Shown one piece after another: positions 1 to 19,741 of a DNA stretch of 21,701 nucleotides. The stretch covers positions 1-21,701 of the forward strand of contig NW_003148075.1 of assembly GCF_000003605.2 (NCBI RefSeq). Direction: 5' to 3'. The translations under genes and the position numbers were made by a program. Source of the DNA: Saccoglossus kowalevskii. Taxonomy: Eukaryota; Hemichordata; Enteropneusta; Harrimaniidae. A model generated the notes under the pieces. It was given only the letters and a program-made list of their open reading frames with translations. It was not told the origin of the DNA and ran no database searches. Numbering within the stretch: position 1 is the first letter of the stretch; each line of letters starts with the position of its first letter.

Positions 1-1
1 C

Positions 2-85
2 AATCATACCTAGGCATTAAGTGGAGTAAGATATTTTTAGTGGGATACTATATGTATGCTAGACTACATAATGAGATATTACTAG
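2..85. repeat. 84-bp monomer with 2-bp insertion
   Basis: The next monomer starts at 86, so this one is 84 bp. The extra bases lie at about 50-58, where ACTATATGTATGCT replaces ACTATAGATGCT. Its partner at 18598 is 82 bp, so the insertion is specific to this copy. Confidence 0.8.
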
Positions 86-413
86 CATCATGCCTAGGCA
101 TTTGGTGGAGTAAGGAATTGTTAGTGGGATATTCTAGATGCTAGACTACATAATGAGATATTACTAGCATCATACCTAGGCATTAAGTGGAGTAAGATCT
201 TTTTAGTGGGATACTATAGATGCTAGACTACATAATGAGATATTACTAGCATCATACCTAGACATTAAGTGGAGTAAGATATTTTTAGTGGGATACTATA
301 GATGCTAGACTACATAATGAGATATTACTAGCATCATGCATAGGCATTAAGTGGAGTAAGATCTTTTTAGTGGGATACTATAGATGCTAGACTACATAAT
401 GAGATATTACTAG

Positions 414-495
414 CATCATACCTAGGCATTAAGTGGAGTAAGATATTTTTAGTGGGATACTATAGATGCTAGACTACATAATGAGATATTACTAG
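414..495 (+). repeat. Reference monomer (82 bp)
   Basis: This copy is close to the majority sequence and is used here to number monomer positions, starting at CATCATACC. Composition is A29 T26 G17 C10 (33% G+C) with no CpG. Landmarks are the palindrome CCTAGG at 8-13, a T-run at 33-37, the palindrome CTATAG at 47-52, and the arms GATGCTAG (52-59) and CTAGCATC (79 to 4 of the next monomer). Forward stop codons lie in all three phases (for example TAG at 10 and 57, TAA at 17), and reverse stops also occur in all three phases. Because 82 is not a multiple of 3, the frame shifts each monomer, so an open frame in the consensus cannot exceed about 100 bases. Confidence 0.97.
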
Positions 496-499
496 CATC
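465..499. repeat. 8-bp inverted repeat with 19-nt loop, once per monomer (example)
   Basis: GATGCTAG (monomer positions 52-59) is the exact reverse complement of CTAGCATC (79-82 plus 1-4 of the next monomer). The arms are separated by 19 bases, so each intact monomer junction could form an 8-bp stem. Several monomer types break it: GATGTTAG, GATACTAG and GATGCTGG change the left arm, while TACCAGC, TACTTGC and TACGAGC change the right. I saw no compensating change in the other arm. This could be a protein site or a cruciform, or simply chance within a repeated unit. Confidence 0.6.
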
Positions 500-986
500 A
501 TGCATAGGCATTTAATGGAGTAAGATATTGTTAGTGGAATACTGTAGATGCTAGGCTGCAGAATGAGATATTACTAGCATCATACCTAGGTATTTAGTGG
601 AGTAAGATATTGTTAGTGGAATACTATAGAAGCTAGACTACATATGAGATATTACCAGCATCATACCTATGCATTTAGTGGAGTAAGATATTGTTAGTGA
701 AATACTATAGAAGCTAGACTACATAATGAGATATTACTAGCATCATACCTTGGCATTTAGTGGAGTAAGATATTGTTAGTGGGATACTATAGATGCTAGG
801 CTGCATAATGAGATATTACTAGCATCATACCTAGGTATTTAGTGGAGTAAGATATTGTTAGTGGAATACTATAGATGCTAGGCTGCATAATGAGATATTA
901 CTAGCATCATACCTAGGCATTTAGTGGAGTAAGGAATTGTTAGTGGAATAATATAGATGCTAGGCTGCATTATGAGATATTACTAG

Positions 987-1068
987 CATGATACCTAGGC
1001 ATAAAGTGGAGTAAGGCACTGTTAGTGGGATACTATAGATTCTAGGCTACATAATGAGATATTACTAG
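987..1068. repeat. Beta monomer, copy 1
   Basis: A distinctive type with CATGATACC, GGCATAAAG, GGCACTG and GATTCTAGGCTAC. The same four-part haplotype occurs at 7619, 15073 and 20715. The preceding monomer ends GCATTATGAG, a variant also found just before the related monomer at 8684. Confidence 0.85.
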
Positions 1069-1232
1069 CATCATGCCTAGGCATTAAGTGGAGTAAAGGC
1101 ATTGTTAGTGGAATACTATAGATGCTAGACTACATAATGGATATTACTAGCATCATACCTAGGCATTAAGTGGAGTAAGATATTTTTAGTGAGATACTAT
1201 TGATGCTAGACTACATAATGAGATATTACTAG

Positions 1233-1311
1233 CATCATACCTAGGCATTTAGTAGAGTAGATATGTAGTGGGATACTATAGATGCTAGACTACATAATGA
1301 GATATTACTAG
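1233..1311. repeat. 79-bp monomer at the edge of HOR domain I
   Basis: GAGTAGATATGTAGTGGG replaces the usual GAGTAAGATATTGTTAGTGGG, a loss of three bases. It directly precedes the first alpha cassette at 1312. Confidence 0.85.
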
Positions 1312-1803
1312 CATCATACCTAGACATTAAGTGGAGTAAGATATTGTTAGTGGGATATTCTAGATGCTAGACTACATAATGAGATATTACTAGCATCATA
1401 CCTAGGCATTAAGTGGAGTAAGGTATTGTTAGTGGGATATTCTAGATGTTAGACTACATAATGAGATATTACTAGCATCATACCTAGGCATTAAGTGGAG
1501 TAAGATATTGTTAGTGGTATACTATAGATACTAGACTACATAATGAGATATTACTAGCATCATACCTAGGCATTAAGTGGAGTAAGATCTTTTTAGTGGG
1601 ATACTATATATGCTAGACTACATAATGAGATATTACTAGCATCATACCTAGGCATTAAGTGGAGTAAGATCTTTTTAGTGGGATACTATAGATGCTAGAC
1701 TACATAATGAGATATTACTAGCATCATACCTAGACATTAAGTGGAGTAAGATATTGTTAGTGGGATACTATAGATGCTGGGCTGCATAATGAGATATTAC
1801 TAG
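1312..1803. repeat. Alpha cassette 1 (six monomers, 492 bp)
   Basis: Monomer order: (1) GGGATATTCTAGATGCTAG; (2) the same with GATGTTAG; (3) GGTATACTATAGATACTAG; (4) GATCTTTTTAG with TATATATGC; (5) GATCTTTTTAG; (6) CCTAGACATTAAG ending CTGGGCTGC. Monomer 1 differs from most copies in having CATCAT, ATTAAG and GATATTG rather than CACCAT, ATTTAG and GGCATTG. It is followed directly by delta copy 1. Monomers 2-6 closely match 3605-4014, 2211 bp downstream. Confidence 0.9.
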
Positions 1804-2375
1804 CATCATATCTAGGCATTTAGTGGAGTAAGATATTTTTAGTGGGATACTATAGATGCTAGACTACATAATGAGATATTACTTGCATCATGCCTAGGCA
1901 TTTAGTGGAGTAAGATATTGTTAGTGGAATACTAAAGATGCTAGACTACATATGAGATATTACCAGCATCATACCTAGGCATTTAGTGGAGTAAGGAATT
2001 GTTAGTGGAATACTATAGATGCTAGGCTGCATAATGAGATATTACTAGCATCATACCTAGGTATTTAGTGGAGTAAGATATTGTTAGTGGAATACTATAG
2101 ATGCTAGACTACATATGAAATATTACCAGCATCATACCTAGGCATTTAGTGAAGTAAAGAACTGTTAGTGGAATACTATAGATGCTAGGCTGCATAATGA
2201 GATATTACTAGCATCATACCTAGGCATTTAGTAGAGTAAGGAATTGTTAGTGGAATATTATAGATGCTAGGCTGCATAATGAGATATTACTAGCATCATA
2301 CCTAGGCATTTAGTGGAATAAGGAATTGTTAGTGGAATACTATAGATGCTAGGCTGCATAATGAGATATTACTAG
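1804..2375. repeat. Delta block 1 (seven monomers, 572 bp)
   Basis: Order: (1) CATATCTAGG with TTTTT, ending TACTTGC; (2) CATGCC, ending ACATATGAG/TACCAGC (81 bp); (3) GGAATTG/GGAATAC/GGCTGC; (4) AGGTATTT, ending ACATATGAAATATTACCAG (81 bp); (5) GTGAAGTAAAGAACTG; (6) GGAATATTATAG; (7) GTGGAATAAGG. The two 81-bp monomers explain 572 rather than 574 bp. Other copies start at 4015, 5980 and 9992. Confidence 0.9.
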
Positions 2376-2539
2376 CATCATGCCTAGACATTAAGTGGAG
2401 TAAGATATTGTTAGTGGGATACTATAGATGCTAGACTACATAATGAGATATTACTAGCATCATACCTAGGCATTAAGTGGAGTAAGATATTTTTAGTGGG
2501 ATACTATAGATGCTAGACTACATAATGAGATATTACTAG

Positions 2540-3030
2540 CACCATACCTAGACATTTAGTGGAGTAAGGCATTGTTAGTGGGATATTCTAAATGCTAGAC
2601 TACATAATGAGATATTACTAGCATCATACTTAGGCATTAAGTGGAGTAAGATATTGTTAGTGGGATATTCTAGATGTTAGACTACATAATGAGATATTAC
2701 TAGCATCATACCTAGGCATTAAGTGGAGTAAGATATTGTTAGTGGGATACTATAGATACTAGACTGCATAATGAGATATTACTAGCACCATACCTAGGCA
2801 TTAAGTGGAGTAAGATCTTTTTAGTGGGATACTATAGATGCTAGACTACATAATGAGATATTACTAGCATCATACCTAGGCATTAAGTGGAGTAAGATCT
2901 TTTTAGTGGGATACTATAGATGCTAGACTACATAATGAGATATTACTAGCATCATACCTAGACATTAAGTGGAGTAGATATTGTTAGTGGGATACTATAG
3001 ATGCTGGGCTGCATAATGAGATATTACTTG
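2540..3030. repeat. Alpha cassette 2 (491 bp)
   Basis: The full six-monomer order, one base short because GAGTAGATATT replaces GAGTAAGATATT near 2975. It carries private variants GGGATATTCTAAATGC, CATACTTAGG, and CTAGACTGCAT followed by CACCATACC. All three recur in the cassette at 19742, exactly 17,202 bp away. Confidence 0.9.
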
Positions 3031-3358
3031 CATCATGCCTAGGCATTTAGTGGAGTAAGATATTGTTAGTGGGAATACTATAGATGCTAGACTACATATG
3101 AGATATTACCAGCATCATACCTTGGCATTTAGTGGAGTAAGGAATTGTTAGTGGAATACTATAGATGCTAGGCTGCATAATGAGATATTACTAGCATCAT
3201 ACCTAGGCATTTAGTGGAGTAAGGAATTGTTAGTGGAATATTATAGATGCTAGGCTGCATAATGAGATATTACTAGCATCATACCTAGGCATTTAGTGGA
3301 ATAAGGAATTGTTAGTGGAATACTATAGATGCTAGGCTGCATAATGAGATATTACTAG
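3031..3358. repeat. Shortened delta block (four monomers)
   Basis: Resembles delta monomers 2, 3, 6 and 7: CATGCC with TACCAGC, then GGAATTG, then GGAATATTATAG, then GTGGAATAAGG. Delta monomers 1, 4 and 5 are absent. A TACTTGC end is present just before 3031, so the TACTTGC mark of the missing monomer 1 has been joined onto alpha monomer 6. Confidence 0.75.
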
Positions 3359-3522
3359 CATCATGCCTAGACATTAAGTGGAGTAAGATATTGTTAGTGG
3401 GATACTATAGATGCTAGGCTGCATAATGAGATATTACTAGCATCATGCCTAGGCATTAAGTGGAGTAAGATATTGTTAGTGGGATACTATAGATGCTGGG
3501 CTGCATAATGAGATATTACTAG

Positions 3523-4014
3523 CATCATACCTAGACATTTAGTGGAGTAAGGCATTGTTAGTGGGATATTCTAGATGCTAGACTACATAATGAGATATTA
3601 CTAGCATCATACCTAGGCATTAAGTGGAGTAAGATATTGTTAGTGGAATATTCTAGATGTTAGACTACATAATGAGATATTACTAGCATCATACCTAGGC
3701 ATTAAGTGGAGTAAGATATTGTTAGTGGTATACTATAGATACTAGACTACATAATGAGATATTACTAGCATCATACCTAGGCATTAAGTGGAGTAAGATC
3801 TTTTTAGTGGGATACTATATATGCTAGACTACATAATGAGATATTACTAGCATCATACCTAGGCATTAAGTGGAGTAAGATCTTTTTAGTGGGATACTAT
3901 AGATGCTAGACTACATAATGAGATATTACTAGCATCATACCTAGACATTAAGTGGAGTAAGATATTGTTAGTGGGATACTATAGATGCTGGCCTGCATAA
4001 TGAGATATTACTAG
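3523..4014. repeat. Alpha cassette 3, start of the best 1392-bp HOR unit
   Basis: Full six-monomer order. Here monomer 3 has GGTATACTATAGATACTAG, monomer 4 has TATATATGC, and monomer 6 ends CTGGCCTGC. It starts a complete alpha-delta-epsilon unit ending at 4914. Confidence 0.92.
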
Positions 4015-4586
4015 CATCATATCTAGGCATTTAGTGGAGTAAGATATTTTTAGTGGGATACTATAGATGCTAGATTACATAATGAGATATTACTTGCATC
4101 ATGCATAGGCATTTAGTGGAGAAAGATATTGTTAGTGGAATACTATAGATGCTAGACTACATATGAGATATTACCAGCATCATACCTAGGCATTTAGTGG
4201 AGTAAGGAATTGTTAGTGGAATACTATAGATGCTAGGCTGCATAATGAGATATTACTAGCATCATACCTAGGTATTTAGTGGAGTAAGATATTGTTAGTG
4301 GAATACTATAGATGCTAGACTACATAAGAAATATTACCAGCATCATACCTAGGCATTTAGTGAAGTAAAGAACTGTTAGTGGAATACTATAGATGCTAGG
4401 CTGCATAATGAGATATTACTAGCATCATACCTAGGCATTTAGTGGAGTAAGGAATTGTTAGTGGAATATTATAGATGCTAGGCTGCATAATGAGATATTA
4501 CTAGCATCATACCTAGGCATTTAGTGGAATAAGGAATTGTTAGTGGAATACTATAGATGCTAGGCTGCATAATGAGATATTACTAG
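4015..4586. repeat. Delta block 2 (572 bp)
   Basis: Same seven-monomer order as 1804-2375. Local differences include ACATAAGAAATATTACCAG in monomer 4, CATGCATAGG in monomer 2 and AGATTAC in monomer 1. The monomer-5 mark GAAGTAAAGAACTG is at 4362, 2211 bp after its counterpart at 2151. Confidence 0.9.
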
Positions 4587-4914
4587 CATCATGCCTAGAC
4601 GTTAAGTGGAGTAAGATATTGTTAGTGGGATACTATAGATGCTAGGCTGCATAATGGGATATTACTAGCATCATGCCTAGGCATTAAATGGAGTAAGATA
4701 TTGTTAGTGGGATAGTATAGATGCTGGGCTGCATAATGAGATATTACTAGCATCATACCTAGACATTTAGTGGAGTAAGATATTGTTAGTGGGATACTAT
4801 AGATGATAGACTACATAATGAGATATTACTAGCATCATACCTAGGCATTAAGTGGAGTAAGATATTTTTAGTGGGATACTATAGATGCTAGACTACATAA
4901 TGAGATATTACTAG
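4587..4914. repeat. Epsilon block 1 (four monomers, 328 bp)
   Basis: Order: (1) CATGCCTAGACRTTAAG with GGGATAC; (2) CATGCCTAGGCATTAA ending CTGGGCTGC; (3) CCTAGACATTTAG with GGGATAC; (4) GGCATTAAG with GATATTTTTAG. The same block is at 10564-10891 and 11548-11875. The first monomer here carries a rare CpG (AGACGTT, near 4600). Confidence 0.85.
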
Positions 4915-5406
4915 CACCATACCTAGACATTTAGTGGAGTAAGGCATTGTTAGTGGGATATTCTAGATGCTAGACTACATAATGAGATATTACTAGCATC
5001 ATACCTAGGCATTAAGTGGAGTAAGATATTGTCAGTGGGATATTCTAGATGTTAGACTACATAATGAGATATTACTAGCATCATACCTAGGCATTAAGTG
5101 GAGTAAGATATTGTCAGTGGTATACTATAGATTCTAGACTACATAATGAGATATTACTAGCATCATACCTAGGCATTAAGTGGAGTAAGATCTTTTTAGT
5201 GGGATACTATAGATGCTAGACTACATAATGAGATATTACTAGCATCATACCTAAGCATTAAGTGGAGTAAGATCTTTTTAGTGGGATACTATAGATGCTA
5301 GACTACATAATGAGATATTACTAGCATCATACCTAGACATTAAGTGGAGTAAGATATTGTTAGTGGGATACTATAGATGCTGGGCTGCATAATGAGATAT
5401 TACTAG
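4915..5406. repeat. Alpha cassette 4 (492 bp)
   Basis: Full order. Monomers 2 and 3 carry TTGTCAGTGG in place of TTGTTAGTGG, a mark shared with the cassettes at 10892 and 11876. Monomer 3 has GATTCTAG rather than GATACTAG, a variant shared only with the truncated cassette at 5653. Confidence 0.9.
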
Positions 5407-5652
5407 CATCATATCTAGGCATTTAGTGGAGTAAGATATTGTTAGTGGAATACTATTGATGCTAGGCTGCATAATGAGATATTACGAGCACCATACCTAG
5501 ACATTTAGTGGAGTAAGATATTGTTAGTGGGATACTATAGATGCTAGGCTGCATAATGAGATATTACTAGCATCATACCTAGGCATTAAGTGGAGTAAGA
5601 TATTTTTAGTGGGATACTATAGATGCTAGACTACATAATGAGATATTACTAG
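5407..5652. repeat. Zeta monomer and two linker monomers
   Basis: The zeta monomer (5407-5488) is CATATCTAGG with GGAATACTATTGATGC and TACGAGC, an alternative to delta monomer 1 after alpha. It is followed by CACCATACCTAGACATTTAG and a TTTTT monomer, then another alpha start. Other zeta monomers start at 8927 (variant), 12368, 17532, 18106 and 20234 (variant). Confidence 0.8.
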
Positions 5653-5979
5653 CACCATACCTAGACATTTAGTGGAGTAAGGCATTGTTAGTGGGATATT
5701 CTAGATGCTAGACTACATAATGAGATATTACTAGCATCATACCTAGGCATTAAGTGGAGTAAGATATTGTCAGTGGTATACTATAGATTCTAGACTACAT
5801 AATGAGATATTACTAGCATCATACCTAGGCATTAAGTGGAGTAAGATCTTTTAGTGGGATACTATAGATGCTAGACTACATAATGAGATATTACTAGCAT
5901 CATACCTAGGCATTAAGTGGAGTAAGATCTTTTTAGTGGGATACTATATATGCTAGACTACATAATGAGATATTACTAG
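5653..5979. repeat. Truncated alpha cassette (four monomers)
   Basis: Alpha monomers 1, 3, 4 and 5 are present and 2 and 6 are missing. Monomer 1 (GGGATATTC, GATGCTAG) passes directly to GTCAGTGGTATACTATAGAT of monomer 3, and monomer 5 leads into an aberrant delta start. One base is missing in GATCTTTTAG near 5850. The TTGTCAGTGG and GATTCTAG marks tie it to the cassette at 4915. Confidence 0.85.
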
Positions 5980-5998
5980 CATCATTATCATATCTAGG
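5980..5998. other. 6-bp insertion at a rearrangement junction
   Basis: The normal start CATCATATCTAGG reads CATCATTATCATATCTAGG here. The extra bases sit exactly where alpha monomer 6 has been lost and delta begins, so they probably mark the breakpoint. Confidence 0.75.
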
Positions 5999-6162
5999 CA
6001 TTTATTTGGAGTAAGATATTTTTAGTGGGATACTATAGATGCTAGACTACATAATGAGATATTACTTGCATCATGCCTAGGCATTTAGTGGAGTAAGATA
6101 TTGTTAGTGGAATACTAAATATGCTAGACTACATATGAGATATTACCAGCATCATACCTAGG

Positions 6163-6175
6163 CATTTAGTAAGGA
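6163..6175. other. 5-bp deletion within a monomer
   Basis: CATTTAGTAAGG replaces CATTTAGTGGAGTAAGG. The missing GGAGT lies between two AGT copies, as expected for slippage or a short-homology deletion. Confidence 0.85.
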
Positions 6176-6553
6176 ATTGTTAGTGGAATACTATAGATGC
6201 TAGGCTGCATAATGAGATATTACTAGCATCATACCTAGGTATTTAGTGGAGTAAGATATTGTTAGTGGAATACTATAGATGCTAGACTACATATGAAATA
6301 TTACCAGCATCATACCTAGGCATTTAGTGAAGTAAAGAACTGTTAGTGGAATACTATAGATGCTAGGCTGCATAATGAGATATTACTAGCATCATACCTA
6401 GGCATTTAGTGGAGTAAGGAATTGTTAGTGGAATATTATAGATGCTAGGCTGCATAATGAGATATTACTAGCATCATACCTAGGCATTTAGTGGAATAAG
6501 GAATTGTTAGTGGAATACTATAGATGCTAGGCTGCATAATGAGATATTACTAG

Positions 6554-6640
6554 CATCATGCCTAGACATTAAGTGGAGTAAGATATTGTTAGTGGGATAC
6601 TATATATGCTAGGCTGCATAATGAGATATTAGTAGCATCA
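6554..6640. repeat. Linker monomer between HOR domain I and block Z
   Basis: An epsilon-1-like monomer (CATGCCTAGACATTAAG) with TATATATGC and an altered end, ATATTAGTAGCATC. It is followed at once by the block Z match. Confidence 0.6.
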
Positions 6641-8015
6641 TGCCTAGGCATTAAGTGGAGTAAGATATTTTTAGTGGGATACTATAGATGCTAGACTAAA
6701 TAATGAGATATTACTAGCATCATGCATAGGCATTTAGTGGAGTAAGGAATTATTAGTGGGATATTCTAAATGCTAGACTACATAGTGAGATATTACTAGC
6801 ATCATACCTAGGCATTTAGTGGAGTAAGAAATTGTTAGTGGGATATTCTAGATGCTAGACTACATAACGAGATATTACTAGCATCATACCTAGGCATTAA
6901 GTGGAGTAAGATATTGTTAGTGGGATACTATAGATGCTAGAATACATAATGAGATATTACTAGCATCATGCCTAGGCATTAAGTGGCATAAGGCACTGAT
7001 AGTGGGATACTATAGATGCTAGGCTGCATAATGAGATATTACTAGCATCATGCCTAGGCATTAAGTGGTGTAAGATATTGTTAGTGGGATACTATAGATG
7101 CTAGGCTGCATAATGAGATATTACTAGCATCATGCCTAGGCATTAAGTGGAGTAAGATATTGTTAGTGGGATACTATTGATGCTGGGCTGCATAATGTGA
7201 TATTACTAGCATCATGCCTAGACATTAAGTGGAGTAAGGAATTGTTAGTGGAATACTATAGATGCTGGGCTGCATAATGAGATATTACTAGCATCATGCC
7301 TAGGCATTAAGTGGAGTAAGATATTGTTAGTGGAATACTATAGATACTAGGCTGCATAATGAGATATTACTAGAATCATACCTAGGCATTTAGTGGAGTA
7401 AGGAATTGTTAGTGGAATACCGTAGATGCTAGGCTGCATAATGAGATATTACTAGCACCATACCTAGACATTTAGTGGAGTAAGGCATTGTTAGTGGAAT
7501 GCTATAGATGCTAGACTACATATGAGATATTACCAGCATCATACCTAGACATTTAGTGGAGTAAGGTATTGTTATTGGGATAATGTAGATGCTAGGCTGC
7601 ATAATGAGATATTACTAGCATGATACCTAGGCATAAAGTGGAGTAAGGCACTGTTAGTGGGATACTATAGATTCTAGGCTACATAATGAGATATTACTAG
7701 CATCATACCTAGGCATTAAGTGGAGTAAGATATTTTTAGTGGGATACTATAGATGCTAGACTACATAATGAGATATTACTAGCATCATGCCTAGGCATTT
7801 AGTGGAGTAAGGAATTGTTAGTGGGATATTCTAGATGCTAGACTACATAATGAGATATTACGAGCATCATACCTAGGCATTAAGTGGAGTAAGATATTTT
7901 TAGTGGGATACTATAGATGCTAGACTACATAATGAGATATTACTAGCATCATACCTAGGCATTAAGTGGAGTAAGATATTTTTAGTGGGATACTATAGAT
8001 GCTAGACTACATAAT
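6641..8015. repeat. Block Z copy 1 (about 1.4 kb)
   Basis: About 17 monomers repeated in the same order at 14012-15469. Shared rare marks: AGACTAAATAATGAG, GAATTATTAG (6747 and 14119), TCTAAATGCTAG followed by CATAGTGAG, CTAGAATACAT (6937 and 14391), GTGGCATAAGGCACTGATAG (6985 and 14439), GTGGTGTAAG, GTTATTGGGATAATG (7571 and 15025) and a beta monomer. The offset is 7372 bp at the left and 7454 bp after one monomer difference. Both ends are approximate. Confidence 0.88.
7456..7700. repeat. Three-monomer block ending in beta, copy 1
   Basis: CACCATACCTAGACATTTAG with GGAATGCTATAG and TACCAGC; then GTTATTGGGATAATGTAG; then beta at 7619 (CATGATACC, CATAAAG, GGCACTG, GATTCTAGGCTAC). The same trio is at 14910-15154 and, with a 10-bp deletion, at 20562-20796. 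Confidence 0.9.
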
Positions 8016-8683
8016 GAGATATCACTAGCATCATACCTAGGCATTAAGTGGAGTAAGATATTTTTTGTGGGATACTATAGATGCTAGACTACATAATGAG
8101 ATATTACTAGCATCATACCTAGGCATTAAGTGGAGTAAGATATTTTTAGTGGGATACTATAGATGCTAGACTACATAATGAGATATTACTTGCATCATGC
8201 CTAGGCATTTAGTGGAGTAAGATATTGTTAGTGGAATACTGTAGATGCAGGCTGCATAATGAGATATTACTAGCATCATACCTAGGTATTTAGTGGAGTA
8301 AGATATTGTTAGTGGAATACTATAGATGTTAGACTACATAATGAGATATTACTTGCATCATGCCTAGACATTTAGTGGAGTAAGATATTGTAAGTGGTAT
8401 ACTATAGAAGCTAGACTACATAATGAGATATTACTAGCATCATACCTAGGCATTTAGTGGAGTAAGATATTGTTAGTGGAATACTATAGATGATAGGCTG
8501 CATAATGAGATATTACTAGCATCATACCTAGGCATTTAGTGGAGTAAGGAATTGTTAGTGGAATACTATAGATGCTAGGCTGCATAATGAGATATTACTA
8601 GCATCATACCTAGGCATTTAGTGGAGTAAGGAATTGTTAGTGGAATACTATAGATGCTAGGCTGCATTATGAGATATTACTAG
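8016..8683. repeat. Mixed monomers after block Z copy 1
   Basis: TTTTT/AGACTAC monomers pass into GGAATAC/GGCTGC monomers from about 8230. Local oddities are ATATCACTAGC near 8020, TTTTTTGTGGG near 8050 and GATGCAGGCTGC (two bases lost) near 8245. No cassette order is seen. Confidence 0.75.
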
Positions 8684-8765
8684 CATGATACCTAGGCATA
8701 AAGTGGAGTAAGGCACTGTTAGTGGGATACTATAGATGCTAGGCTGCATAATGAGATATTACTAG
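8684..8765. repeat. Partial beta monomer (hybrid)
   Basis: It has the beta left half (CATGATACC, GGCATAAAG, GGCACTG) but the common right half GATGCTAGGCTGC in place of GATTCTAGGCTAC. The preceding monomer ends GCATTATGAG, as before the beta at 987. This looks like a crossover or conversion within one monomer. Confidence 0.75.
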
Positions 8766-8847
8766 CATCATGCCTAGGCATTAAGTGGAGTAAGATATTG
8801 TTAGTGGGATACTATAGATGCTAGGCTGCATAATGAGATATTACTAG

Positions 8848-8926
8848 CATCATGCCTAGGCATTAAGTGGAGTAAGATATTGTTAGTGGGATACTATAGA
8901 TACTGGGCTGCATGATATATTACTAG
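8848..8926. repeat. 79-bp monomer
   Basis: GCATGATATATTAC replaces GCATAATGAGATATTAC near 8911-8924, a net loss of three bases. It directly precedes the variant zeta monomer at 8927. Confidence 0.8.
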
Positions 8927-9172
8927 CATCATACCTAGACATTAAGTGGAGTACGATATTGTTAGTGGAATACTATTGATGCTAGGCTGCATAATGTGAT
9001 ATTACGAGCACCATACCTAGACATTTAATGGAGTAAGATATTGTTAGTTGGATACTATAGATGCTATGCTGCATAATGAGATATTACTAGCATCATACCT
9101 AGGCATTAAGTGAAGTAAGATATTGTTAGTGTCGTACTATATATGCTAGGCTGCATAATGAGATATTACTAG
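8927..9172. repeat. Variant zeta monomer and linkers
   Basis: 8927 has GGAATACTATTGATGC and TACGAGCACC of zeta, but CCTAGACATTAAG and GTACGATATTG at its left. The following monomers have unusual bases: ATGCTATGC near 9064 and GTGTCGTACTATATATGC near 9130, which contains a rare CpG. Confidence 0.7.
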
Positions 9173-9499
9173 CATCATACCTAGGTATTTAGTGGAGTAA
9201 GATATTGTTAGTGGAATACTATAGATGCTAGACTACATATAAAATATTACCAGCATCATACCTAGGCATTTAGTGAAGTAAAGAACTGTTAGTGGAATAC
9301 TATAGATGCTAGGCTGCATAATGAGATGTTACTAGCATCATACCTAGGCATTTAGTGGAGTAAGGAATTGTTAGTGGAATATTATAGATGCTAGGCTGCA
9401 TAATGAGATATTACTAGCATCATACCTAGGCATTTAGTGGAATAAGGAATTGTTAGTGGAATACTATAGATGCTAGGCTGCATAATGAGATATTACTAG
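9173..9499. repeat. Partial delta block (monomers 4-7)
   Basis: AGGTATTT with ATATAAAATATTACCAG, then GAAGTAAAGAACTG (9275), GGAATATTATAG and GTGGAATAAGG. Delta monomers 1-3 are absent. In register with the delta block at 5980, 2946 bp upstream. Confidence 0.85.
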
Positions 9500-9581
9500 C
9501 ATCATGCCTAGACATTAAGTGGAGTAAGATATTGTTAGTGCGATACTATAGATGCTAGGCTGCATAATGAGATATTACTAG

Positions 9582-9991
9582 CAACATACCTAGGCATTAA
9601 GTGGAGTAAGATATTGTTAGTGGGATATTCTAGATGTTAGACTACATAATGAGATATTACTAGCATCATACCTAGGCATTAAGTGGAGTAAGATACTGTT
9701 AGTTGTATACTATAGATACTAGACTACATAATGAGATATTACTAGCATCATACCTAGGCATTAAGTGGAGTAAGATCTTTTTAGTGGGATACTATATATG
9801 CTAGACTACATAATGAGATATTACTAGCATCATACCTAGGCATTAAGTGGAGTAAGATCTTTTTAGTGGGATACTATAGATGCTAGACTACATAATGAGA
9901 TATTACTAGCATCATACCTAGACATTAAGTGGAGTAAGATATTGTTAGTGGGATACTATAGATGCTGGGCTGCATAATGAGATATTACTAG
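9582..9991. repeat. Alpha cassette lacking monomer 1
   Basis: Alpha monomers 2-6 with private changes CAACATACC at the start and GATACTGTTAGTTGTATAC in monomer 3. Monomer 4 has TATATATGC as in 1558-1639 and 3769-3850, so this belongs with the cassettes at 1312 and 3523. Confidence 0.88.
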
Positions 9992-10563
9992 CATCATATC
10001 TAGGCATTTAGTGGAGTAAGATATTTTTAGTGGGATACTATAGATGCTAGACTACATAATGAGATATTACTTGCATCATGCCTAGGCATTTAGTGGAGTA
10101 AGATATTGTTAGTGGAATACTAAATATGCTATACTACATATGAGATATTACCAGCATCATACCTAGGCATTTAGTGGAGTAAGGAATTGTTAGTGGAATA
10201 CTATAGATGCTAGGCTGCATAATGAGATATTACTAGCATCATACCTAGGTATTTAGTGGAGTAAGATATTGTTAGTGGAATACTATAGATGCTAGACTAC
10301 ATATGAAATATTACCAGCATCATACCTAGGCATTTAGTGAAGTAAAGAACTGTTAGTGGAATACTATAGATGCTAGGCTGCATAATGAGATATTACTAGC
10401 ATCATACCTAGGCATTTAGTGGAGTAAGGAATTGTTAGTGGAATATTATAGATGCTAGGCTGCATAATGAGATATTACTAGCATCATACCTAGGCATTTA
10501 GTGGAATAAGGAATTGTTAGTGGAATACTATAGATGCTAGGCTGCATAATGAGATATTACTAG
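9992..10563. repeat. Delta block 4 (572 bp)
   Basis: All seven monomers in order, the least damaged copy with 1804-2375. AATACTAAATATGC near 10116 is shared with delta block 3, and ATGCTATACTAC just after it is private. Confidence 0.9.
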
Positions 10564-10891
10564 CATCATGCCTAGACATTAAGTGGAGTAAGATATTGTT
10601 AGTGGGATACTATAGATGCTAGGCTGCATAATGAGATATTACTAGCATCATGCCTAGGCATTAAGTGGAGTAAGATATTGTTAGTGGGATACTATAGATG
10701 CTGGGCTGCATAATGAGATATTACTAGCATCATACCTAGACATTTAGTGGAGTAAGATATTGTTAGTGGGATACTATAGATGCTAGACTACATAATGAGA
10801 TATTACTAGCATCATACCTAGGCATTAAGTGGAGTAAGATATTTTTAGTGGGATACTATAGATGCTAGACTACATAATGAGATATTACTAG
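10564..10891. repeat. Epsilon block 2 (328 bp)
   Basis: Four monomers in the order seen at 4587-4914, followed directly by alpha monomer 1 with CACCATACATAG. Repeated exactly at 11548-11875 as far as I can see. Confidence 0.88.
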
Positions 10892-11383
10892 CACCATACA
10901 TAGACATTTAGTGGAGTAAGGCATTGTTAGTGGGATATTCTAGATGCTAGACTACATAATGAGATATTACTAGCATCATACCTAGGCATTAAGTGGAGTA
11001 AGATATTGTCAGTGGGATATTCTAGATGTTAGACTACATAATGAGATATTACTAGCATCATACCTAGGCATTAAGTGGAGTAAGATATTGTCAGTGGGAT
11101 ACTATAGATACTAGACTACATAATGAGATATTACTAGCATCATACCTAGGCATTAAGTGGAGTAAGGTCTTTTTAGTGGGATACTATAGATGCTAGACTA
11201 CATAATGAGATATTACTAGCATCATACCTAGGCATTAAGTGGAGTAAGATCTTTTTAGTGGGATACTATAGATGCTAGACTACATAATGAGATATTACTA
11301 GCATCATACCTAGACATTAAGTGGAGTAAGATATTGTTAGTGGGATACTATAGATGCTGGGCTGCATAATGAGATATTACTAG
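10892..11383. repeat. Alpha cassette (492 bp), in tandem duplicate A
   Basis: Full order with private marks CACCATACATAG (monomer 1), TTGTCAGTGG (monomers 2 and 3) and GTAAGGTCTTTTTAG (monomer 4). All three recur 984 bp downstream. Confidence 0.93.
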
Positions 11384-12374
11384 CATCATACCTAGGCATT
11401 TAGTGGAGTAAGGAATTGTTAGTGGAATATTATAGATGCTAGGCTGCATAATGAGATATTACTAGCATCATACCTAGGCATTTAGTGGAATAAGGAATTG
11501 TTAGTGGAATACTATAGATGCTAGGCTGCATAATGAGATATTACTAGCATCATGCCTAGACATTAAGTGGAGTAAGATATTGTTAGTGGGATACTATAGA
11601 TGCTAGGCTGCATAATGAGATATTACTAGCATCATGCCTAGGCATTAAGTGGAGTAAGATATTGTTAGTGGGATACTATAGATGCTGGGCTGCATAATGA
11701 GATATTACTAGCATCATACCTAGACATTTAGTGGAGTAAGATATTGTTAGTGGGATACTATAGATGCTAGACTACATAATGAGATATTACTAGCATCATA
11801 CCTAGGCATTAAGTGGAGTAAGATATTTTTAGTGGGATACTATAGATGCTAGACTACATAATGAGATATTACTAGCACCATACATAGACATTTAGTGGAG
11901 TAAGGCATTGTTAGTGGGATATTCTAGATGCTAGACTACATAATGAGATATTACTAGCATCATACCTAGGCATTAAGTGGAGTAAGATATTGTCAGTGGG
12001 ATATTCTAGATGTTAGACTACATAATGAGATATTACTAGCATCATACCTAGGCATTAAGTGGAGTAAGATATTGTCAGTGGGATACTATAGATACTAGAC
12101 TACATAATGAGATATTACTAGCATCATACCTAGGCATTAAGTGGAGTAAGGTCTTTTTAGTGGGATACTATAGATGCTAGACTACATAATGAGATATTAC
12201 TAGCATCATACCTAGGCATTAAGTGGAGTAAGATCTTTTTAGTGGGATACTATAGATGCTAGACTACATAATGAGATATTACTAGCATCATACCTAGACA
12301 TTAAGTGGAGTAAGATATTGTTAGTGGGATACTATAGATGCTGGGCTGCATAATGAGATATTACTAGCATCATA
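11360..12374. repeat. 984-bp tandem duplication, right copy
   Basis: Right member of the pair. The junction near 11384 joins alpha monomer 6 directly to delta monomer 6, skipping delta 1-5, as expected for unequal exchange between two HOR units out of step. Confidence 0.9.
11876..12367. repeat. Alpha cassette (492 bp), in tandem duplicate B
   Basis: Same sequence and private marks as 10892-11383. It is followed by a zeta monomer (12368) instead of delta. Confidence 0.93.
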
Positions 12375-14011
12375 TCTAGGCATTTAGTGGAGTAAGATAT
12401 TGTTAGTGGAATACTATTGATGCTAGGCTGCATAATGAGATATTACGAGCACCATACCTAGACATTTAGTGGAGTAAGATATTGTTAGTGGAATACTATA
12501 GATGCTAGGCTGCATAATGAGATATTACTAGCATCATACCTAGGCATTAAGTGGAGTAAGATATTTTTAGTGGGATACTATAGATGCTAGGCTGCATAAT
12601 GAGATATTACTAGCATCATGCCTAGGCATTAAGTGGCATAAGGCACTGTTAGTGGGATACTATAGATGCTAGGCTGCATAATGAGATATTACTAGCATCA
12701 TGCCTAGGCCATTTAGTGGAGTAAGATATTGTTAGTGGGATACTATAGATGCTAGGCTGCATAATGAGATATTACTAGCATCATGCCTAGGCATTAAGTG
12801 GAGTAAGATATTGTTAGTGGGATACTATAGATGCTAGGCTGCATAATGAGATATTACTAGCATCATGCCTAGGCATTAAGTGGAGTAAGATATTGTTAGT
12901 GGGATACTATAGATGCTGGGCTGCATAATGAGATATTACTAGCATCATACCTAGACATTTAGTGGAGTAAGATATTGTTAGTGGGATACTATAGATGCTA
13001 GACTACATAATGAGATATTACTAGCATCATACCTAGGCATTAAGTGGAGTAAGATATTGTTAGTGGGATACTATAGATGCTAGACTACTTAATGAAATAT
13101 TACTAGCACCATACCTAGGCATTTAGTGGAGTAAGGAATTGTTAGTGGGATATTCTAGATGCTAGACGACATAATGAGATATTACTAGCATCATACCTAG
13201 GCATTCAGTGGAGTAAGGAATTGTTAGTGGGATATTCTAGATGCTAGACTACATAATGAGATATTACTAGCATCATACCTAGGCATTAAGTGGAGTAAGA
13301 TATTGTTAGTGGGATACTATAGATGCTAGACTACATAATGATATATTACTAGCATCATACTTAGGCATTAAGTGGAGTAAGATATTTTTAGTGGGATACT
13401 ATAGATGCTAGACTACATAATGAGATATTACTTGCATCATGCCTAGGCATTTAGTGGAGTAAGATATTGTTAGTGGAATACTATAGAAGCTAGACTACAT
13501 ATGAGATATTACCAGCATCATACCTAGGCATTTAGTGGAGTAAGATATTGTTAGTGGGATACTATAGATGCTAGGCTGCATAATGAGATATTACTAGCAT
13601 CATACCTAGGTATTTAGTGGAGTAAGATATTGTTAGTGGAATACTATAGATGATAGGCTGCATAATGAGATATTACTAGCATCATACCTAGGCATTTAGT
13701 GGAGTAAGGAATTGTTAGTGGAATACTATAGATGCTAGGCTGCATAATGAGATATTACTAGCATCATACCTAGGCATTTAGTGGAGTAAGAAATTGTTAG
13801 TGGAATACTATAGATGCTAGGCTACATAATGAGATATTACTAGCATCATGCCTAGGCATTAAGTGGAGTAAGGCATTGTTAGAGGAATACTATAGATGCT
13901 AGACTACATAATGAGATATTACTAGGACCATACCTTGGCATTTAGTGGAGTAAGGCATTGTTAGTGGGATACTCTAGATGCTAGACTACATAATGAGATA
14001 TTACTAGCATC
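12368..14011. repeat. Irregular domain with zeta start
   Basis: Zeta (12368), then mixed monomers without cassette order. Noted: GTGGCATAAGGCACTG near 12626 (compare block Z), a 1-bp insertion in CCTAGGCCATTTAG near 12710, AGACTACTTAATGAAATATT near 13085, TAGACGACATAATG near 13164 and ACTAGGACCATACC near 13921. One 81-bp TACCAGC monomer lies near 13498. Confidence 0.75.
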
Positions 14012-15469
14012 ATACCTAGGCATTAAGTGGAGTAAGATATTTTTAGTGGGATACTATAGATGCTAGACTAAATAATGAGATATTACTAGCATCATGCATA
14101 GGCATTTAGTGGAGTAAGGAATTATTAGTGGGATATTCTAAATGCTAGACCACATAGTGAGATATTACTAGCATCATACCTAGGCATTTAGTGGAGTAAG
14201 GAATTGTTAGTGGGATATTCTAGATGCTAGACTACATAATGAGATATTACTAGCATCATACCTAGGCATTAAGTGGAGTAAGATATTGTTAGTGGGATAC
14301 TATAGATACTAGACTACATAATGAGATATTACTAGCATCATACCTAGGCATTTAGTAGAGTAAGATATTGTTAGTGGGATACTATAGATGCTAGAATACA
14401 TAATGAGATATTACTAGCATCATGCCTAGGCATTAAGTGGCATAAGGCACTGATAGTGGGATACTATAGATGCTAGGCTGCATAATGAGATATTACTAGC
14501 ATCATGCCTAGGCATTCAGTGGTGTAAGATATTGTTAGTGGGATACTATAGATGCTAGGCTGCATAATGAGATATTACTAGCATCATGCCTAGGCATTAA
14601 GTGGAGTAAGATATTGTTAGTGGGATACTATTGATGCTGGGCTGCATAATGTGATATTACTAGCATCATGCCTAGACATTAAGTGGAGTAAGGAATTGTT
14701 AGTGGAATACTATAGATGCTGGGCTGCATAATGAGATATTACTAGCATCATGCCTAGGCATTTAGTGGAGTAAGATATTGTTAGTGGAATACTATAGATA
14801 CTAGGCTGCATAATGAGATATTACTAGAATCATACCTAGGCATTTAGTGGAGTAAGGAATTGTTAGTGGAATACTATAGATGCTAGGCTGCATAATGAGA
14901 TATTACTAGCACCATACCTAGACATTTAGTGGAGTAAGGCATTGTTAGTGGAATGCTATAGATGCTAGACTACATATGAGATATTACCAGCATCATACCT
15001 AGACATTTAGTGGAGTAAGGTATTGTTATTGGGATAATGTAGATGCTAGGCTGCATAATGAGATATTACTAGCATGATACCTAGGCATAAAGTGGAGTAA
15101 GGCACTGTTAGTGGGATACTATAGATTCTAGGCTACATAATGAGATATTACTAGCATCATACCTAGGCATTAAGTGGAGTAAGATATTTTTAGTGGGATA
15201 CTATAGATGCTAGACTACATAATGAGATATTACTAGCATCATGCCTAGGTATTTAGTGGAGTAAGGAATTGTTAGTGGGATATTCTAGATGCTAGACTAC
15301 ATAATGAGATATTACGAGCATCATACCTAGGCATTAAGTGGAGTAAGATATTTTTAGTGGGATACTATAGATGCTAGACTACATAATGAGATATTACTAG
15401 CATCATACCTAGGCATTAAGTGGAGTAAGATATTTTTAGTGGGATACTATAGATGCTAGACTAAATAAT
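14012..15469. repeat. Block Z copy 2
   Basis: Partner of 6641-8015. It has one extra monomer, with CATTTAGTAGAG near 14355, just before CTAGAATACAT, which shifts the offset from 7372 to 7454. Differences are scattered single bases: ACCACATAG (14149), CATTCAGTGGTG (14514), GGTATTTAG (15248), and ACTATAG where copy 1 has ACCGTAG (about 7419). The two copies appear roughly 98-99% alike by eye. Confidence 0.87.
14910..15154. repeat. Three-monomer block ending in beta, copy 2
   Basis: Same trio as 7456-7700 at exactly 7454 bp offset. Beta starts at 15073. Confidence 0.9.
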
Positions 15470-15660
15470 GAGATATTACTAGCATCATGCATAGGCATTT
15501 AGTGGAGTAAGGAATTATTAGTGGGATATTCTAAATGCTAGACTACATAGTGAGATATTACTAGCATCATACCTAGGCATTTAGTGGAGTAAGGAATTGT
15601 TAGTGGGATATTCTAGATGCTAGACTACATAATGAGATATTACTAGCATCATACCTAGGC
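15444..15660. repeat. Repeat of the first part of block Z
   Basis: AGACTAAATAATGAG, CATGCATAGG, GAATTATTAG, TCTAAATGCTAG and CATAGTGAG appear again immediately after block Z copy 2, so the block restarts for about two to three monomers before the pattern changes. This makes three copies of these marks in the window. Confidence 0.8.
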
Positions 15661-16022
15661 ATTAAGTGGAGTAAGATATTTTTAGTGGGATACTATAGAT
15701 GCTAGACTACATAATGAGATATTACTAGCATCATGCATAGGCATTTAGTGGAGTAAGATATTGTTAGTGGAATACTGTAGATGCTAGGCTGCAGAATGAG
15801 ATATTACTAGCATCATACCTAGGTATTTAGTGGAGTAAGATATTGTTAGTGGAATACTATAGAAGCTAGACTACATATGAGATATTACCAGCATCATACC
15901 TAGGCATTTAGTGGAGTAAGATATTGTTAGTGGAATACTATAGAAGCTAGACTACATAATGAGATATTACTAGCATCATACCTAGGCATTTAGTGGAGTA
16001 AGATATTGTTAGTGGGATACTA
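15661..16022. repeat. Third copy of the distant-duplication segment
   Basis: CATGCATAGG, AATACTGTAGATGC, CTGCAGAATGAG (15787), AGGTATTT, GAAGCTAG with TACCAGC, then GAAGCTAG again. The same order is at 439-790 and 19033-19384. The offset from here to the right copy is 3362 bp, exactly 41 monomers. Confidence 0.83.
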
Positions 16023-16055
16023 TAGATGCTAGACTACATAATGAGATATTACTAG

Positions 16056-16547
16056 CACCATACCTAGACATTTAGTGGAGTAAGGCATTGTTAGTGGGAT
16101 ATTCTAGATGCTAGACTACATAATGAGATATTACTAGCATCATACCTAGGCATTAAGTGGAGTAAGATATTGTTAGTGGGATATTCTAGATGTTAGACTA
16201 CATAATGAGATATTACTAGCATCATACCTAGGCATTAAGTGGAGTAAGATATTGTTAGTGGTATACTATATATACTAGACTACATAATGAGATATTACTA
16301 GCATCATACCTAGGCATTAAGTGGAGTAAGATCTTTTTAGTGGGATACTATAGATGCTAGACTACATAATGAGATATTACTAGCATCATACCTAGGCATT
16401 AAGTGGAGTAAGATCTTTTTAGTGGGATACTATAGATGCTAGACTACATAATGAGATATTACTAGCATCATACCTAGACAATAAGTGGAGTAAGATATTG
16501 TTAGTGGGATACTATAGATGCTGGGATGCATAATGAGATATTACTAG
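16056..16547. repeat. Alpha cassette (492 bp), HOR domain III
   Basis: Full order, with private ACTATATATACTAG in monomer 3 and AGACAATAAG plus CTGGGATGC in monomer 6. It is followed by a delta-1-like monomer with TACTTGC (16548), then a CTGCAGAATGAG monomer rather than delta 2. Confidence 0.9.
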
Positions 16548-17039
16548 CATCATATCTAGGCATTTAGTGGAGTAAGATATTTTTAGTGGGATACTGTAGA
16601 TGCTAGACTACATAATGAGATATTACTTGCATCATGCCTAGGCATTTAGTGGAGTAAGATATTGTTAGTGGAATACTGTAGATGCTAGGCTGCAGAATGA
16701 GATATTACTAGCATCATACCTAGGCATTAAGTGGAGTAAGATCTTTTTAGTGGGATACTATAGATGCTAGACTACATAATGAGATATTACTAGCATCATA
16801 CCTAGGCATTTAGTGGAGTAAGGAATTGTTAGTGGGATATTCTAGATGCTAGACTACATAATGAGATATTACTAGCATCATACCTAGGCATTAAGTGGAG
16901 TAAGATATTGTTACTGGGATACTATAGATGCTAGACTACATAATGATATATTACTAGCATCATACCTAGGCATTAAGTGGAGTAAGATATTTTTAGTGGG
17001 ATACTATAGATGCTAGACTACATAATGAGATATTACTAG
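16548..17039. repeat. Six linker monomers between alpha cassettes
   Basis: Delta-1-like, then AATACTGTAGATGC with CTGCAGAATGAG, then GATCTTTTTAG, GGAATTG with GGGATATTC, GATATTGTTACTGGG with AATGATATATT, and a TTTTT monomer. They make up a 984-bp alpha-to-alpha spacing like that of 10892-11876, but with different content. Confidence 0.8.
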
Positions 17040-17531
17040 CACCATACCTAGACATTTAGTGGAGTAAATCATTGTTAGTGGGATATTCTAGATGCTAGAC
17101 TACATAATGAGATATTACTAGCATCATACTTAGGCATTAAGTAGAGTAAGATATTGTTAGTGGGATATTCTAGATGTTAGACTACATAATGAGATATTAC
17201 TAGCATCATACCTAGGCATTAAGTGGAGTAAGATATTGTTAGTGGGATACTATAGATACTAGACTACATAATGAGATATTACTAGCATCATACCTAGGCA
17301 TTAAGTGGAGTAAGATCTTTTTAGTGGGATACTATAGATGCTAGACTACATAATGAGATATTACTAGCATCATACCTAGGCATTAAGTGGAGTAAGATCT
17401 TTTTAGTGGGATACTATAGATGCTAGACTACATAATGAGATATTACTAGCATCATACCTAGACATTAAGTGGAGTAAGATATTGTTAGTGGGATACTATA
17501 GATGCTGGGCTGCATAATGAGATATTACTAG
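17040..17531. repeat. Alpha cassette (492 bp)
   Basis: Full order with CATACTTAGG and GTAGAGTAAG in monomer 2. It is followed by one zeta monomer, then the next alpha, so 17040-17613 is a seven-monomer unit of 574 bp. Confidence 0.92.
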
Positions 17532-17613
17532 CATCATATCTAGGCATTTAGTGGAGTAAGATATTGTTAGTGGAATACTATTGATGCTAGGCTCCATAAT
17601 GAGATATTACGAG

Positions 17614-18105
17614 CATCATACCTAGACATTTAGTGGAGTAAGATATTGTTAGTGGGATATTCTAGATGCTAGACTACATAATGAGATATTACTAGCATCA
17701 TACCTAGGCATTAAGTGGAGTAAGATATTGTTAGTGGGATATTCTAGATGTTAGACTACATAATGAGATATTACTAGCATCATACCTAGGCATTAAGTGG
17801 AGTAAGATATTGTTAGTGGGATACTATAGATACTAGACTACATAATGAGATATTACTAGCATCATACCTAGGCATTAAGTGGAGTAAGATCTTTTTAGTG
17901 GGATACTATAGATGCTAGACTACATAATGAGATATTACTAGCATCATACCTAGGCATTAAGTGGAGTAAGATCTTTTTAGTGGGATACTATAGATGCTAG
18001 ACTACATAATGAGATATTACTAGCATCATACCTAGACATTAAGTGGAGTAAGATATTGTTAGTGGGATACTATAGATGCTGGGCTGCATAATGAGATATT
18101 ACTAG
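17614..18105. repeat. Alpha cassette (492 bp)
   Basis: Full order, in register with 17040-17531 at 574 bp (7 x 82). Monomer 1 has CATCATACCTAGACATTTAG and GATATTG, a hybrid of the monomer that usually follows zeta and alpha monomer 1. It is followed by zeta (18106). Confidence 0.92.
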
Positions 18106-18597
18106 CATCATATCTAGGCATTAAGTGGAGTAAGATATTGTTAGTGGAATACTATTGATGCTAGGCTGCATAATGAGATATTACGAGCACCATACCTAGA
18201 CATTTAGTGGAGTAAGATATTGTTAGTGGGATACTATAGATGCTAGGCTGCATAATGAGATATTACTAGCATCATACCTAGGCATTAAGTGGAGTAAGAT
18301 ATTGTTAGTGGGATACTATACATGCTAGGCTGCATAATGAGATATTACTAGCATCATACCTAGGCATTAAGTGGAGTAAGGCATTGTTAGTGGGATACTC
18401 TAGATGCTAGACTACATAATGAGATATTACTAGCATCATACCTAGGCATTAAGTGGAGTAAGATATTTTTAGTGGGATACTATAGATGCTAGACTACATA
18501 ATGAGATATTACTAGCACCATACCTAGACATTTAGTGGAGTAAGGCATTGTTAGTGGGATATTCTAGATGCTAGACTACATACTGAGATATTACTAG
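18106..18597. repeat. Zeta and linker monomers
   Basis: Zeta (18106-18187, with ATTAAG rather than ATTTAG), then CACCATACCTAGACATTTAG, further GATATTG monomers, a GGCATTG/GGGATACTCTAG monomer (near 18400), a TTTTT monomer and an alpha-1-like monomer (18516) not followed by alpha 2. Confidence 0.7.
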
Positions 18598-19438: not shown

Positions 19439-19590
19439 AGTAAGGAATTGTTAGTGGAATACTATAGATGCTAGACGACATAATGAGATATACTAGCATC
19501 ATACCTAGGCATTTAGAGGAGTAAGGAATTGTTAGTGGGATATTCTAGATGCTAGACTACATAATGAGATATTACTAGCATCATACTAGG
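19430..19590. repeat. Two adjacent monomers with three 1-bp deletions
   Basis: TTTAGTGAGTAAGG (near 19438), GAGATATACTAGC (near 19489) and CATCATACTAGGC (near 19583) each lack one base. They follow directly on the end of the distant duplication. Confidence 0.8.
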
Positions 19591-19741
19591 CATTAAGTGG
19601 AGTAAGATATTGTTAGTGGGATACTATAGATGCTAGACTACATAATGATATATTACTAGCATCATACCTAGGCATTAAGTGGAGTAAGATATTTTTAGTG
19701 GGATACTATAGATGCTAGACTACATAATGAGATATTACTTG

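What the first reader, a model, noticed from the sequence alone, without database searches (positions are those of the whole stretch)
3523..10891. A 17-monomer, 1392-bp higher-order repeat unit
The order alpha (6) + delta (7) + epsilon (4) is complete at 3523-4914 and, with its first monomer replaced, at 9500-10891. Both are exactly 1392 bp, which equals 17 x 82 minus the two 81-bp monomers in delta. The units starting at 1312 (1228 bp), 2540 (983 bp) and 10892 (984 bp) fit as this unit minus 2, 5 and 5 monomers. HOR structure marks homogenised satellite, in known cases often at or near centromeres, but no centromere role can be shown here.
Basis: seen in the sequence. Interest (0 to 1): 0.8.

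Follow-up and report, generated by a model that had tools for sequence, protein, structure and literature searches.

The report
Irregular repeat blocks in satellite array
The window is one uninterrupted array of an 82-base repeat from an animal, probably an acorn worm, in which blocks of 12, 15 and 17 repeats have been copied, and the repeat seems to descend from one arm of a small scattered inverted-repeat element.

Summary
The window is one 82-bp tandem array. The two 1392-bp stretches (3523-4914, 9500-10891) match at 1366/1392 bases, and the 1228-, 983- and 984-bp blocks fit as the same order minus 2, 5 and 5 monomers. But 1392 bp is not the dominant period: lag 12 (984 bp) is strong (z 6.9), lag 17 weak (z 2.6), lags 6 and 7 below chance. 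Blocks of 12, 15 and 17 monomers follow irregularly: local duplication, not a fixed unit. The 82-bp family is on three contigs; two non-core 22-mers (up to 2 mismatches) match nowhere else in the assembly. One edge lies 5.6 kb from EGF/laminin-G open frames. Nothing supports a centromere.

Beyond the finding, a ~31-bp core of the monomer is scattered genome-wide in arrays of different units (37-161 bp). In 24 loci, neighbouring monomers on opposite strands face outward in 8 cases and inward in 0, five of them 103-129 bp apart. I read the satellites as expanded arms of an inverted-repeat (foldback/MITE-like) element, comparable to Drosophila Tetris. Its termini, target-site duplications and transposase are not shown.

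The parts
1..21701 (+). 82-bp tandem satellite array; the search tool places the window at G000:C3834:1-21701 (the length of C3834 itself is not printed)
   Evidence: TRF 265 copies, 92% matches; 265 monomers, mean pairwise identity 90.8%, 153 distinct
1312..2539 (+). 15-monomer block (GHEAACNLBIOBBJA)
   Evidence: 1215/1228 bases equal to 3523-4914; labels
2540..3522 (+). 12-monomer block (GHEAACLBBBCC)
   Evidence: 965/983 bases equal to 3523-4914
3523..4914 (+).
   Evidence: 98.1% identical to 9500-10891, no gaps
3589..3619 (+). one example of the ~31-bp core shared with other satellites (AATGAGATATTACTAGCATCATACCTAGGCA); it recurs with small changes in the monomers
   Evidence: first 22 bases located; conservation across 23 representatives
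9500..10891 (+). 17-monomer block, second copy, first monomer replaced (10 mismatches)
10892..11875 (+). 12-monomer block (GHEAACBBCCJA)
   Evidence: 971/984 bases equal to 3523-4914
10376..11390 (+). first copy of a 1015-bp exact repeat with lag 984 (second copy 11360-12374), the longest exact repeat of the window
6885..8032 (+). 14-monomer block repeated at 14339 (lag 91 monomers); end approximate
   Evidence: run of 14 monomers with at most 3 mismatches each

Best explanation
The window is the inside of a satellite locus of which the assembly holds at least 41 kb on three contigs. Its 82-bp monomer is a relative of the outward-facing arm of a short inverted-repeat element (foldback or MITE-like) that is scattered over the genome. 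At several sites an arm, alone or with part of the element's interior, was amplified head to tail, and this gave separate satellites with units from 37 to 161 bp that share a ~31-bp core. At this locus the array went on to be rearranged by unequal exchange or a similar copying process that duplicated stretches of several to many monomers. That is why blocks of 12, 15 and 17 monomers share one internal order. Shown here: the array, the block duplications, the confinement of the 82-bp family to three contigs of this assembly, the dispersed core, and the outward pairing in the loci scanned. Inferred: that the pairs are a mobile element, that it is non-coding, that arms were the source of the arrays and not the reverse, that the three contigs are one locus, and that unequal exchange was the copying process.
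For: Block structure. Confinement: two non-core 22-mers at up to 2 mismatches occur 422 and 384 times in the genome, exactly the 422 and 384 counted on C3834, C2413 and the end of C3139; the core 22-mer occurs 1010 times, 471 of them on those contigs. A 25-base core pattern occurs 252 times without mismatch, control 0; the 100 places listed are on 28 contigs, 21 of which have one listed place. Core columns across 23 representatives: pairwise identity 0.955 (-4 to 13) and 0.803 (13 to 27); 0.43-0.45 just outside; 0.29-0.32 further out; chance 0.276; core columns outside the anchor 0.813. Outward pairs 8, inward 0, in 24 loci scanned; reversed-sequence control 7 hits, best E 4.3; two-sided sign test 0.0078. 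Five of 8 gaps are 103-129 bp. Interior modules: L024 reads core-minus, R, L, core-plus; L027 has R before its plus core; L028 and L060 have L before a plus core; reversed controls 0. One side of the pair holds the array in L011, L022, L024 and L059.
Against: No target-site duplication or element end was demonstrated. No transposase was looked for. Two of the 8 outward pairs rest on weak hits (L022 E 0.03, L024 E 0.02); without them it is 6 of 6. A looser letter scan gave two inward candidates, L025 (21/30) and L060 (20/30), that the profile did not report. The L module in L027, and a degenerate core with L module inside L020, were seen by eye only. The R hit of L020 is on the outer side of its core. 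16 of 24 loci show no inverted partner; 9 of the loci fetched hold withheld stretches that could hide one. At the edge on C3139 the partner would lie on the unassembled side, so the window's own array gives no test. Loci were found through similarity to the window, which favours the core. The 23 representatives were picked from 31 rows; the 8 dropped were further copies of a family and the two rows of L059, one of them a degenerate core.
Confidence: 0.66

Rival explanations
1. A regular, homogenised higher-order satellite of centromere type, of which the 17-monomer unit is the canonical repeat and this contig a fragment.
For: Two 1392-bp copies at 98.1% against 90.8% mean monomer identity; the array breaks the assembly, so its true size is unknown.
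Against: 17-mer twice, not adjacent; lag 17 weak; C2413 with the same monomers has none whole. Only three contigs carry the family. No CENP-B box within 3 mismatches. The assembled edge is 5.6 kb from open frames with EGF and laminin-G domains.
Confidence: 0.08
2. [quoted passage not shown]
For: Core conserved while flanks fall towards chance; core less variable than the rest of the unit in 8 of 9 arrays measured, which represent 7 families; exact core matches on 28 contigs among 100 listed places.
Against: In C4303 the core is more variable than the rest (ratio 1.34), and in C543 and C1900 its rank among windows is middling (32 of 86, 28 of 86). Common descent from one element explains a shared core without selection. 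No binding data.
Confidence: 0.15
3. An ordinary family of minisatellites with a common core that spread by copying of short tandem pieces; outward pairs are chance inversions.
For: 16 of 24 loci show one strand only. Loci do share other dispersed repeats in their flanks, mostly at differing distances from the core, so no larger carrier is evident.
Against: 8 outward against 0 inward, gaps clustered at 103-129 bp, interior modules beside the inner end of cores.
Confidence: 0.18
4. The block structure is an assembly artefact of collapsed or misjoined repeats.
For: Array contigs of 21.7 and 18.8 kb; tandem arrays are prone to this.
Against: Independent contig C2413 has the same monomer vocabulary and similar cassettes; blocks differ by scattered substitutions, apart from the 1015-bp exact repeat.
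Confidence: 0.06

Closest known systems
Tetris / TIR-220 satellite of Drosophila virilis (PMC4079207; abstract and sections 10 and 20 read)
   Same: Inverted-repeat, apparently nonautonomous element whose arms carry tandem repeats (~220 bp there), with longer satellite-like arrays of the same repeat elsewhere
   Different: Tetris has arms of up to 1,735 bp with an outer flanking domain and 8-10-bp target-site duplications; here arms are about 80 bp, ends are not defined, and several satellites with different unit lengths share mainly a core
[quoted passage not shown] PMC9673304 passages; the 2021 centromere paper was not held)
   Same: Divergent satellites that share a short conserved motif, with simple and higher-order arrays
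   Different: The window has no CENP-B box within 3 mismatches; no CenH3 or FISH data here; the core is longer (~31 bp) and also present in outward-facing pairs
[quoted passage not shown]
   Same: Diverged monomers in an order repeated as a block at higher identity
   Different: Block length varies (12, 15, 17 monomers), copies are not in one regular series, and the family is on three contigs only
Amphioxus 'mirage' minisatellites (PMC3087553 passages)
   Same: Unstable tandem duplications in a marine deuterostome
   Different: Mirages duplicate exon-intron boundaries of the gene itself; no shared core is described in the passages read

Membership tests
Higher-order repeat satellite | Blocks of several diverged monomers repeated at clearly higher identity than monomer to monomer | tested here: met
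   98.1% between blocks against 90.8% mean monomer identity; 200 shuffles 64 or more mismatches against 17
Higher-order repeat satellite | One block length reiterated in tandem through the array | tested here: not met
   Starts of the cassette are 1228, 983, 1392, 4585, 1392, 984, 4180, 984, 574, 2128 bp apart
Centromeric satellite | CENP-B box | tested here: not met
   0 matches at up to 3 mismatches; a 15-base generic form had 0 exact matches. Not a required feature in all animals (recalled)
Centromeric satellite | CenH3 association and presence at the primary constriction | not testable with these tools
   No ChIP or FISH data; the family is on three contigs only
Foldback / MITE-like inverted-repeat element | Inverted arms around a short interior at dispersed sites | tested here: met
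   8 outward, 0 inward pairs in 24 loci, five gaps of 103-129 bp; 16 loci without a partner
Foldback / MITE-like inverted-repeat element | Tandem repeats inside the arms | tested here: met
   L011, L022, L024, L059: several copies on one side of the pair; that these copies lie within element ends is not shown
Foldback / MITE-like inverted-repeat element | Shared interior | tested here: inconclusive
   L or R modules on the inner side of cores in L024, L027, L028, L060; both modules in one locus only in L024 by the search; L020 has R on the outer side
Foldback / MITE-like inverted-repeat element | Defined ends and target-site duplications | not tested
Foldback / MITE-like inverted-repeat element | Autonomous partner with transposase | not tested
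   No search made

The most novel reading that the evidence does not exclude
A ~31-bp core, first carried by a short inverted-repeat element as a protein-binding site, seeds and marks a whole set of unrelated-looking satellites in this genome; the bound protein (a transposase-derived, CENP-B-like factor) keeps the core constant while the rest of each unit is replaced, and it drives the amplification that makes higher-order blocks.
Probability: 0.12. Interest if true: 0.65.

Novelty: new member of a known kind. Interest (0 to 1): 0.4.

Why it matters
It shows a satellite with higher-order blocks for which nothing points to a centromere, and links it to dispersed inverted pairs, so that the path from small element to satellite to higher-order block may be readable in one genome. 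Several satellites of different unit length that share mainly a core let one test whether short motifs steer satellite birth.

Tried and rejected
Autocorrelation on raw bases misled, since 81-bp monomers shift the register; I used monomer lags. Rfam, tRNA and ORF scans of the window were empty. Plasmid records hold no match to 3523-4914; viral contigs and prokaryote genomes hold no exact match to the core pattern. Four literal stretches of the repeat are in no paper of the library. Amphioxus mirage minisatellites were considered and set aside because the mitochondrial code points to another phylum. A larger common carrier (Helitron-like or other) was considered: loci share other dispersed repeats in their flanks (for example L010/L022, L023/L025, L026/L058/L060), mostly at differing distances from the core; one pair, L026 and L060, has such a repeat at a similar distance (about 0.96 kb), which I did not follow. 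An earlier count said the core pattern lies on at least 38 contigs; a recount gives 28 contigs among the 100 listed of 252 places. Codon test for the organism: COX1 scores 504.8 bits with ATA=Ile against 495.1 with ATA=Met; for AAA it does not discriminate (504.8 against 504.6); ND1 scores 361.6 with ATA=Ile and AAA=Lys, 355.4 by table 5, 341.1 by table 9 with AAA=Asn.
Full report
Setting. The window is G000:C3834:1-21701 in an assembly of 572 Mb and 4830 contigs; the length of C3834 is not printed in any call. The window is one 82-bp tandem array from end to end, without tRNA, Rfam match or ORF of 100 aa. In the mitochondrial contig C4830, COX1 and ND1 score best with TGA=Trp, ATA=Ile and AAA=Lys; one AGA stands in ND1 at a serine that I recall as conserved; AGG is absent from COX1, ND1 and COX2; COX1 lies on the opposite strand to ND1 and COX2. 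Passages of PMC3121625 list AUA=Ile, AAA=Lys, AGA=Ser, no AGG, and a derived gene order for the acorn worm Saccoglossus kowalevskii. So a hemichordate is likely. This is an inference, not a species call.

The observation. I cut the array into 265 monomers by alignment to a cyclic consensus and clustered them. The order alpha+delta+epsilon appears as GHEAAC, NLBIOBB and a four-monomer end. The two 1392-bp stretches match at 1366/1392, and the first monomer differs at 10 positions. The three shorter blocks fit as stated. In 200 shuffles of monomer order the best 17-monomer pair never had fewer than 64 mismatches, against 17 observed.

What the order is. Cassette starts lie 1228, 983, 1392, 4585, 1392, 984, 4180, 984, 574 and 2128 bp apart (11 starts, one with its first monomer replaced). 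The share of monomer pairs with at most 2 mismatches is 0.154 at lag 12 (z 6.9), 0.097 at lag 17 (z 2.6), 0.015 at lag 6 (z -3.3) and 0.047 at lag 7 (z -1.2); long lags of 73, 85, 91 and 100 monomers also stand out (z 3.7 to 4.6). By mean distance, lag 17 shows nothing (z -0.1). The longest exact repeat is 1015 bp at lag 984. Contig C2413 (18,760 bp) is array throughout. Of its 229 monomers 98 are identical to a window monomer and 226 are within 3 mismatches; it has the cassette GHEAAC three times and no full 17-mer. Its first 9,999 bases hold exact repeats at a lag of 2857 bp, 35 monomers. The picture is repeated duplication of blocks of varying length.

Where the family is. Two 22-mers from the non-core part, with up to 2 mismatches, are found 422 and 384 times in the whole genome. 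The same counts on C3834 (window), C2413 and 19.7 kb of C3139 are 422 and 384. So at this sensitivity the 82-bp family is nowhere else in the assembly. C3139 shows an edge. Open frames with EGF and laminin-G domains lie at 405-3558 of L010 and the array starts near 9195, 5.6 kb away. Collapse of repeats in the assembly is possible, so the true size is unknown.

The core. The core 22-mer is found 1010 times, control 0, 471 of them on the three contigs. A 25-base pattern that the window itself lacks is found 252 times, control 0; the 100 places listed are on 28 contigs, 21 with one listed place, of which at least C2348, C3690 and C3273 are nevertheless short arrays. The arrays that hold the core have units of 37, 73, 79, 82, 83, 85, 86, 91, 93, 105, 112 and 161 bp. 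Across 23 representatives, chosen from 31 rows, the core columns agree at 0.955 and 0.803, the columns just outside at 0.43-0.45, those further out at 0.29-0.32, chance 0.276. The comparison was ungapped and anchored on 13 core bases, so it overstates the fall outside: a gapped alignment of ten units shows that most also share parts of the rest of the monomer. Core columns outside the anchor still agree at 0.813. Within arrays, the core varies less than the rest in 8 of 9 (ratios 0.22-0.73), more in C4303 (1.34); the nine include two pairs of the same family.

Inverted pairs. A profile from ten monomers was run on 24 loci (L010-L029 without L012, L052, L058-L061). Neighbours on opposite strands within 1500 bp were outward in 8 cases (L011, L020, L022, L024, L027, L028, L059, L061) and inward in none; gaps 727, 489, 259, 103, 122, 110, 122 and 129 bp. 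The reversed-sequence control gave 7 hits, best E 4.3. Sign test 0.0078. Hits of E up to 0.05 were used; L022 and L024 depend on hits of 0.03 and 0.02, and without them it is 6 of 6. A looser scan of letters had shown two inward candidates, L025 and L060, at 21 and 20 of 30, which the profile did not report. Sixteen loci show no partner; nine of the loci hold withheld stretches. Two interior modules, taken from the 105-bp and the 85-bp units, lie on the inner side of cores in L024, L027, L028 and L060; in L024 both are present in the order expected of one element, with seven array copies on one side; in L020 the R hit is on the outer side, as in the 85-bp unit.

How it likely works. An inverted-repeat element spread; arms, with or without interior, were amplified head to tail at some sites; at this locus block duplication by unequal exchange or a like process made the higher-order order. 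Only the patterns are shown; mobility, direction and copying process are inferred. The closest described case is Tetris of Drosophila virilis (PMC4079207, abstract and sections 10 and 20). The Meloidogyne satellites with a CENP-B-box-like motif (PMC3694981 abstract; PMC9673304 passages) are the closest case for a shared motif; whether the core here is held by selection is open.

Print check. Four literal stretches of the repeat gave no paper. Searches on hemichordate satellites (4 papers; 4 papers) listed none on this subject by title and start of abstract; none of these was opened. Most papers of subscription journals are not held. In this second version the confidence of the best explanation went from 0.68 to 0.66 and that of the minisatellite rival from 0.17 to 0.18, because flanking repeats shared between loci, and the selection of rows, are now told in full.

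Noticed in passing
L059:2185-2747 (C3273): A separate inverted-repeat stretch (best pair 2185-2274 and 2657-2747, 91% over 91 bp) sits between monomers of the 105-bp array.
   Followed up: no
L052:8485-9900 and L053:1-6505 (C543): A second satellite with a 38-bp unit (37 + 172 copies, 96-97% matches) on the same contig as the 86-bp array; the profile found no monomer in its L052 part (L053 was not scanned).
   Followed up: no
L009 (C4830), COX1 at 1333-2871 minus: Mitochondrial COX1 is on the opposite strand to ND1 and COX2, and the code fits ATA=Ile, AAA=Lys, AGA=Ser, as listed for Saccoglossus.
   Followed up: partly
L017:2629-3328 (C2): A 37-bp unit that is little more than the core itself, 19 copies: the barest satellite of those seen.
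   Followed up: partly
window 5983-6310: An 89-bp monomer followed by an 81-, a 77- and an 81-bp monomer: an irregular spot of the array.
   Followed up: no
L023:1065-2068 and L025:1-923: A shared stretch (92% over 830 bp) near the cores of both loci but at different distances, probably another dispersed repeat.
   Followed up: no
L026:961-1247 and L060:2701-2982: A dispersed repeat (82% over 294 bp) at about the same distance (0.96 kb) from the core in two loci; related copies in L058, L010 and L022 lie elsewhere.
   Followed up: no
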